From Cordylochernes scorpioides (lineage: Eukaryota; Arthropoda; Arachnida; Pseudoscorpiones; Chernetidae), in assembly GCA_030710605.1 (NCBI GenBank), contig CP092863.1:106564099-106628098 (forward strand): a stretch of DNA of 64,000 nt, read 5' to 3'. The position numbers and the translations under genes were made by a program. Positions 3,143-3,640 of the stretch are shown one piece after another. The notes beneath the pieces were generated by a model that did no database searches, was not told where the DNA came from, and saw only the letters and a list, made by a program, of their open reading frames with translations. Positions within the stretch are counted from its first letter, which is position 1; each line of letters begins with the position of its first letter.

Positions 3143-3640
3143 TTGACTATAGTGGCTCATCCATTGATGAGAGCTCTACTCATCTCCAGCAGACACCATC
3201 AACAAGCTCTACAGGCAATATACCCTGATATTTAGCAGCAACACATAAAATTCCGAGGATAAGTTTCTTTTATTTTAAAATAATAATATTTTGAGCTTTC
3301 GGGCGTAAACAGCCCTTCTTCAGGAATATTTGAAAACAAATTTTTTGAAAACAATTTCAAGTAGAAATGTTTGTACACAAATGGATGGTATCCTTCTTTG
3401 GTCTCGTATTTTTGTGTACAAACATTTCTACTTGAAATTGTTTTCAAAAAATTTGTTTTCAAATATTCCTGAAGAAGGGCTGTTTACGCCCGAAAGCTCA
3501 AAATATTATTATTTTAAAATAAAAGAAACTTATCCTCGGAATTTTATGTGTTGCTGCTAATTATACACCAGAGGATTACACCTTATGATACCCTGATATG
3601 ATTGTTGAGTGGAGATAAGAAAGAAGAAGATAAGAGCATC
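3143..3640 (+). pseudogene. Second LINE L1s tail, split by the foldback
   Basis: The piece at 3143-3231 (GGCTCATCCATTGATGAGAG...CCCTGATAT) continues after the foldback at 3600 with GATTGTTGAGTGGAGATAAG and a GAA-rich tail. The 12-bp ATACCCTGATAT is present on both sides (3220-3231 and 3588-3599), so the intervening DNA is an insertion. Confidence 0.7.
3232..3587. mobile_element. Foldback element FB1 (Penelope-like inverted pLTRs?)
   Basis: Arms of 150 bp (3232-3381 and 3411-3560) are near-perfect inverted copies around a 29-bp spacer. A further 27 bp (3561-3587) follows the right arm. The whole insert is flanked by the 12-bp duplication ATACCCTGATAT. Each arm carries CTGAAGA, stem GGGC/GCCC and GAAAGCT. 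Inverted LTR-like arms, a short unpaired extension and variable-length target duplications fit Penelope-like elements; no reverse transcriptase is present, so the class is inference. A transcript would form a long dsRNA hairpin. Confidence 0.65.

What the first reader, a model, noticed from the sequence alone, without database searches (positions are those of the whole stretch)
3220..3599. Foldback with inverted 150-bp arms, 12-bp target duplication and a one-sided 27-bp extension
FB1 is bounded by ATACCCTGATAT and split a LINE tail. Arms are near-perfect inverted copies, but 27 bp beyond the right arm are unpaired. Together with FB2 and FB3 this defines an element type: inverted arms, 10-12 bp duplication, 25-30 bp extension on one side. 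Penelope-like elements are the closest known parallel (inverted pLTRs plus a short extra terminal segment), yet no reverse transcriptase is present, so a non-autonomous, hairpin-forming Penelope derivative is inferred.
Basis: partly seen in the sequence, partly recalled or inferred. Interest (0 to 1): 0.7.

Follow-up and report, generated by a model that had tools for sequence, protein, structure and literature searches.

The report
Head-to-head truncated Penelope retrotransposon copy
The hairpin-shaped insert is two shortened copies of one Penelope-like retrotransposon joined head to head, and comparing several dozen sibling copies suggests that each DNA strand at the insertion site was extended separately from the element's RNA.

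Summary
In detail: 150-bp inverted arms, a 12-bp target duplication and a one-sided 27-bp extension (3561-3587). Penelope parentage holds too, but FB1 is not an element type of its own. Its arms are the 3' end of a Penelope-like element (PLE): the two sibling copies tested carry reverse transcriptase and GIY-YIG between the same arms. FB1 is a head-to-head dimer of two 5'-truncated monomers; all 23 independent junctions mapped in the family differ. Inverted pLTRs with an optional tail are already described (PMC3846280). The survey adds rules. Of 25 two-armed FB1-family copies (two duplicates dropped), 24 have one tailed and one tailless end, as do 6 of 6 simple pairs found by body sequence. 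Arms of one insertion share template variants (4 of 108 comparisons differ, against 604 of 1879 between insertions). Break points are coupled, and the tailless arm reaches further in 16 of 23. This favours priming on one RNA type from both target strands at two adjacent start sites, in line with in-vitro work (PMC11167929), over copying of one arm from the other. A tRNA-headed family in the window has similar anatomy. Several genome searches did not complete, and only the best-scored copies were seen.

The parts
3220..3231 (.). Target site duplication, left copy (ATACCCTGATAT)
   Evidence: swapped-flank control; empty-site paralogue
3232..3409 (-). Tailless monomer: antisense copy of the PLE 3' end (unit 2585 to about 2762), includes 28 of the 29 nt of the apparent spacer
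3410..3410 (.). One extra base (T) at the head-to-head junction
3411..3560 (+). Tailed monomer: sense copy of the PLE 3' end from unit 2613
3561..3587 (+). 27-bp tail; its last 16 nt equal the start of the PLE unit, i.e. the next unit of a tandem template
   Evidence: L036
3588..3599 (.). Target site duplication, right copy
2989..3133 (.). Diverged tandem paralogue of the target without the insert (empty site)
16536..16980 (.). Related foldback of a second PLE family, tail on the left, TSD ATATCCTCAAT on both sides
56485..56850 (.). Foldback of a tRNA-headed non-autonomous family with similar anatomy, tail on the right, TSD AAATAATTTATT

Best explanation
FB1 is a head-to-head inverted dimer of two 5'-truncated copies of a Penelope/Poseidon-like retroelement (the clade name is by anatomy, no tree was made). 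Shown: arm identity, RT and GIY-YIG in sibling copies, TSD, tail that repeats the start of the unit, different junctions, shared template variants, coupled break points. Inferred: the element's enzyme makes staggered nicks about 12-13 bp apart. Each of the two 3' ends primes reverse transcription on element RNA, one at the inner start site (tailless) and one 27 nt further 3' (tailed). The two antisense cDNAs are then joined near their 3' ends with little or no microhomology, giving an inverted dimer flanked by a duplication. Both cDNAs are made from one RNA molecule or from sister transcripts of one source locus.
For: RT and GIY-YIG between the arms. Of 34 FB1-family copies, 26 are two-armed with one tailed and one tailless end, 1 is tailless at both, 0 tailed at both, 7 single-armed or partial; 24 of 25 two-armed after dropping two duplicates. 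Body-selected sample: 6 of 6 simple pairs one tailed and one tailless. Second PLE family: 12 of 12 two-armed copies after dropping two taken as duplicates. In FB1 each arm holds sequence the other lacks (28 nt at the centre, 27 nt at the end), so neither can be a copy of the other. Arms of one insertion differ at 4 of 108 informative comparisons, between insertions 604 of 1879, 0 of 10,000 permutations as low (22 young dimers; first subset 0 of 35 against 261 of 921). Break points within 130 nt of each other in 13 of 23 dimers against 4.6 expected, p about 5e-5. TSD of 10-15 bp found by script in 23 of 34 copies. Published: the anole PLE cleaves and extends both strands and starts at two adjacent internal sites, the tail lying between them (PMC11167929, parts 1-2 of 4 read).
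Against: No biochemistry here. One tailless/tailless dimer (L035). Seven single-armed or partial copies, so dual priming is not obligatory. The tailed arm reaches further in 7 of 23 dimers, 2 of 11 in the second family and 5 of 39 in the tRNA-headed family, so no single polarity explains all. Concordance within insertions would also follow from two RNAs of one source locus. In the tRNA-headed family arms of one insertion differ at 135 of 966 informative comparisons (between insertions 9553 of 34665), so sharing is weaker there. The FB1-family sample is the best-scored 40 of 982 candidates of a query that is itself a dimer.
Confidence: 0.7

Rival explanations
1. Self-priming: one cDNA (or a strand made on an antisense template) folds back and copies itself, as proposed for bdelloid Penelope elements.
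For: Near-equal break points with a short loop are common (13 of 23); L033 has an almost perfect palindromic centre; junction overlaps exceed chance slightly (mean 1.9 in 17 junctions without extra bases, 1.2 over all 21, against 0.73 for random joins); proposed in PMC3846280 (passages).
Against: A fold-back copy of the tailed strand should carry the tail at both ends; a fold-back copy of the tailless strand could not create the tail. In 16 of 23 dimers the tailless arm holds 5' sequence absent from the tailed arm. A mixed form (two primed cDNAs, then fold-back of one) is not excluded.
Confidence: 0.2
2. FB1 is a propagating non-autonomous hairpin element.
For: Thousands of first-look candidates for two other foldbacks of similar size (3517 and 3649).
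Against: The 23 independent junctions mapped in the FB1 family all differ; monomer lengths run from about 60 bp to 2.8 kb. Only 40 of 982 candidates were scored.
Confidence: 0.04
3. Two separate PLE insertions in opposite orientation, or a later inverted duplication.
For: Duplicated dimers with the same flanks were seen (L016/L017, L039/L040).
Against: In the 23 copies scored by script one TSD encloses the whole dimer, and the junctions printed join monomer to monomer with at most 4 extra bases; 8 of 8 inverted body pairs are head to head.
Confidence: 0.03
4. A DNA foldback transposon moved by a transposase.
For: Inverted arms with a target duplication.
Against: RT and GIY-YIG lie between the arms; one-sided extension; TSD length varies from 10 to 15 bp; variable 5' truncation.
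Confidence: 0.01

Closest known systems
Penelope elements of the bdelloid rotifer Adineta vaga (PMC3846280, passages seen)
   Same: Inverted pLTRs, 8-10 bp TSD, a 31-bp tail optionally present on one of the inverted pLTRs, partial tandem copies, head-to-head junctions.
   Different: Here copy numbers allow counts: one tail per dimer, coupled break points, shared template haplotypes. The authors there favour self-priming on an antisense template.
Poseidon PAc of Anolis carolinensis (PMC11167929, parts 1-2 of 4 read)
   Same: Two adjacent internal RT start sites with the tail between them, AT-rich targets, both strands cut and extended in vitro, tandem template.
   Different: That work is mainly in vitro and, in the parts I read, does not connect dual-strand extension to genomic inverted dimers.
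Animal non-LTR retrozymes (PMC7229834, passages seen)
   Same: Short non-autonomous tandem units for which the authors name PLEs as a strong candidate mobiliser; comparable to the tRNA-headed family of this window.
   Different: Retrozymes carry hammerhead ribozymes; the window's Rfam scan at gathering scores gave three tRNA hits and no ribozyme.

Membership tests
Penelope-like elements (EN+) | Reverse transcriptase domain | tested here: met
   RVT_1 E 4.1e-12 in L009, 3.8e-9 in L010
Penelope-like elements (EN+) | C-terminal GIY-YIG endonuclease | tested here: met
   PF01541 E 8.9e-7 and 8e-7, after the RT domain
Penelope-like elements (EN+) | pLTRs from partial tandem units | tested here: met
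   L036: unit 2667-2791 followed by unit 2-2790, plus an inverted copy; seen clearly in this one of 34 copies and at one of 38 ends of the body-selected sample (L119)
Penelope-like elements (EN+) | Short tail on one terminus | tested here: met
Penelope-like elements (EN+) | Variable target duplication of about 8-15 bp | tested here: met
   10-15 bp, median 13, by script in 23 of 34 copies
Penelope-like elements (EN+) | Hammerhead ribozyme in the pLTR | tested here: inconclusive
   No Rfam hammerhead hit at E up to 10; a hammerhead-like core CTGAAGA..GAAA at 3469-3499 is a recalled motif, not a test; the second family reads CTGTAGA there
Penelope-like elements (EN+) | Placement in the RT tree (Penelope/Poseidon clade) | not tested
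   no reference PLE proteins on hand
DNA foldback transposon | Transposase in autonomous copies | tested here: not met
   The two long copies tested encode RT and GIY-YIG
SINE moved by a PLE (56485-56850 family) | tRNA head | tested here: met
   Rfam tRNA at 5166-5238, 13511-13583, 49330-49389; ARAGORN tRNA-Thr for the first two
SINE moved by a PLE (56485-56850 family) | 3' end shared with an autonomous PLE | not tested
   The genome search did not complete

The most novel reading that the evidence does not exclude
Each PLE insertion of this kind records two reverse transcriptions of one RNA molecule by paired enzymes: one strand starts at the inner site and the other 27 nt behind it, which is why a dimer carries one tail, why both arms share one template haplotype and why they end close together. 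A tRNA-headed non-autonomous family uses the same machinery; its longer arm often stops at the T-loop adenosine (position 58), as if a tRNA-type base modification had blocked the enzyme.
Probability: 0.35. Interest if true: 0.75.

Novelty: new member of a known kind. Interest (0 to 1): 0.55.

Why it matters
How PLEs make their second strand and why their copies are often inverted with one tail is open: PMC3846280 proposes self-priming, PMC11167929 leaves later steps to be validated. Hundreds to thousands of first-look candidates per family in one genome make that question countable. The pairing, haplotype and break-point rules found here speak against simple copying of one arm from the other and give sharp predictions for the purified enzyme. 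If the tRNA-headed family is confirmed as PLE-moved, it would be a SINE-like element outside the usual LINE partnership.

Tried and rejected
Rejected: DNA foldback transposon (RT and GIY-YIG between the arms); a propagating hairpin element (23 of 23 mapped junctions differ); microRNA and other Rfam hits on the palindrome: all below their gathering scores and, I judge, caused by the palindrome, since a non-palindromic arm gives only five weak hits. Tried without result: Rfam for a hammerhead; a PLE relative among solved structures (one weak hit, 8bgj_A, E 0.00039); the paper PMC8557442 is not held. The first arm-length script for the tRNA-headed family had an off-by-one error on the tailed side and was replaced. 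The TSD script missed L013, L023 and L024, where the listing shows matching flanks by eye. Literature: eight searches (listings seen) showed me no paper that counts tail pairing in PLE dimers or describes a PLE-moved tRNA SINE; most subscription papers are not held and I opened only five papers, so this is no proof of absence.

Full report
Observation. FB1 has a 12-bp duplication (3220-3231, 3588-3599), arms 3232-3381 and 3411-3560, a 29-nt centre and a 27-bp extension at 3561-3587. A tandem paralogue of the target at 2989-3133 aligns across the joined flanks with the insert absent. Whether the target is a LINE tail was not tested.

Identity. Searching the window's own genome (2.6 Gb, 24 contigs, unnamed) gave 93 matches from the 40 scored of 982 candidates. 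The places found were fetched with flanks; three first windows (L026-L028) were replaced by wider ones (L044, L042, L043). L009 carries open frames between the arms with RVT_1 (E 4.1e-12) and GIY-YIG (E 8.9e-7), in that order; L010 likewise. By its translations L010 is a large dimer with the RT-EN region in both orientations (only one was scanned). The arms of FB1 are therefore the 3' end of an endonuclease-bearing Penelope-like element. Most scored arms are 98-100% identical to FB1's, so it was recently active; older copies at 81-94% also exist.

Anatomy of the family. Against a unit cut from L009 (2792 bp including the tail) each of 34 copies is mapped. Twenty-six are two-armed with one tailed and one tailless end; one (L035) is tailless at both ends; in five only a tailless arm was seen (L029, L032, L034, L042, L044; L042 runs into a masked stretch); one has only a tailed arm (L041) and one is partial (L021). 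L016/L017 and L039/L040 share flanks and are taken as duplicates, leaving 24 of 25 dimers mixed. The 27 two-armed copies are all head to head. The tailless end stops at GCTGCTAA in most copies; the tail usually ends at or within a few bases of CACCTTATG and is longer in L018, L022 and L038. The script found TSDs of 10-15 bp, median 13, in 23 of 34 copies, all of them mixed dimers; L013, L023 and L024 show matching flanks by eye, and the single-armed L029 has a 10-bp one. Own flanks match for 10 bp or more in 20 of 22 copies, swapped flanks in 1.1% of 462 pairings. The tail repeats the start of the unit, and L036 shows a true partial tandem, so the template reads from one unit into the next.

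Sampling check. The first query was itself a dimer and could bias the sample. A query from the coding body (unit about 1217-2157) gave another set (40 of 3782 candidates scored). The 8 inverted body pairs in it, one of them L010, all run minus then plus, that is head to head. Of the 38 ends that were new, fetched in 300-base windows, 17 are tailed, 19 tailless and 2 unclear; L112 and L128 share flanks. Of 7 new pairs, 6 are simple and each has one tailed and one tailless end; in the seventh the tailed side continues into another unit and the other side is tailless. Partner ends of the other copies were not located.

Template. Among 22 young dimers (duplicates dropped, older copies left out), the two arms of one insertion differ at 4 of 108 informative comparisons, arms of different insertions at 604 of 1879, and none of 10,000 permutations is as low. 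The four exceptions are isolated sites in L030, L036 (two, one of them a gap) and L037, not switches of haplotype. Both arms thus come from one template type.

Break points. In 23 mapped dimers the two 5' truncation points lie within 130 nt of each other in 13, against 4.6 expected by permutation (p about 5e-5). In 12 of those 13, and in 16 of 23 overall, the tailless arm reaches further 5'. Left out of the 23: L013 (complex), L035 (no tail) and the duplicates L016 and L040. In FB1 the tailless arm has 28 nt at the centre that the tailed arm lacks, and the tailed arm has the 27-nt tail; neither can be a copy of the other. Junction overlap is small: mean 1.9 bp in the 17 of 21 junctions without extra bases, while the other 4 have 1-4 extra bases; random joins give 0.73.

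Mechanism. PMC11167929 (parts 1 and 2 of 4 read) shows that an anole PLE cuts and extends both strands and starts at two adjacent internal sites with the tail between them. PMC3846280 (12 of 16 passages seen) describes inverted pLTRs with an optional tail on one and explains the junctions by self-priming; a curation guide (PMC8969392, passages) also mentions inverted pLTRs and short 3' extensions. The pairing rule, the shared haplotype and the coupled break points fit priming from both target strands on one RNA type, each strand using one of the two start sites, followed by joining of the two cDNAs. Whether one RNA molecule or sister transcripts serve, and whether the joining step includes a fold-back of one cDNA, is not settled.

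The other foldbacks. 16536-16980 is a related PLE family (40 of 3649 candidates scored). Of 18 loci examined, 14 are two-armed; with L076 and L079 treated as duplicates, 12 of 12 have one tailed and one tailless end, and the tailless arm is longer in 9 of 11 that can be compared (exceptions L082, L091; L084 undetermined). In the other 4 only one arm was seen. 56485-56850 belongs to a family with 40 of 3517 candidates scored. Its fuller unit, seen at 5099-5395, has a tRNA-Thr-like head and begins with its own tail sequence; window 4880-5395 holds an inverted copy followed by a partial tandem. In ten aligned copies (two of them identical) the extension is on one side; TSDs were read by eye in a few and not counted. 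In 39 copies the tailless arm is longer in 34. The tailless arm ends at T-loop position 58 or the next base in 19 of 39; in 4 more the tailed arm ends there. The query's own end lies 9 nt away, so the peak does not come from the query, but these copies were chosen by similarity to a dimer, and at least three pairs share flanks (two; L094/L099). Arms of one insertion differ here at 135 of 966 informative comparisons, between insertions at 9553 of 34665: sharing is weaker than in the FB1 family, perhaps because the copies are older. That methylated A58 stops reverse transcriptases is recalled knowledge. Whether an autonomous PLE shares this 3' end could not be tested, since the requests did not complete.

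Verdict. FB1 is an ordinary 5'-truncated inverted copy of a recently active Penelope-like element: a new member of a known kind. The interest lies in what many such copies reveal about PLE second-strand synthesis, and in the tRNA-headed companion family.

Noticed in passing
window 4880-5395, 13440-13780, 49174-49389, 63141-63299, 56485-56850: Copies of a tRNA-Thr-headed non-autonomous family; at 4880-5395 and 56485-56850 with PLE-type anatomy (one-sided tail that equals the unit start, head-to-head dimer, partial tandem).
   Followed up: partly
window 56485-56850 and the 39 copies among L045-L074 and L093-L102: In 19 of 39 copies the tailless arm stops at T-loop position 58 of the tRNA-like head or the next base, and in 4 more the tailed arm does.
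   Followed up: partly
window 16536-16980: Second PLE family in the window with the same foldback anatomy; its tail shares GGATTAC with the FB1 tail.
   Followed up: yes
window 16560-16965 and 56485-56850: Identical copies lie 84.1 kb and 81.8 kb away on the same contig, pointing to segmental duplication around the window.
   Followed up: no
window 3469-3499: Hammerhead-like core CTGAAGA..GAAA (recalled motif) in the arm; no Rfam hammerhead hit, and the second family departs from the core.
   Followed up: partly
window 32118-34901, 40074-41416, 8280-8622: Other clusters of long inverted repeats, not examined.
   Followed up: no
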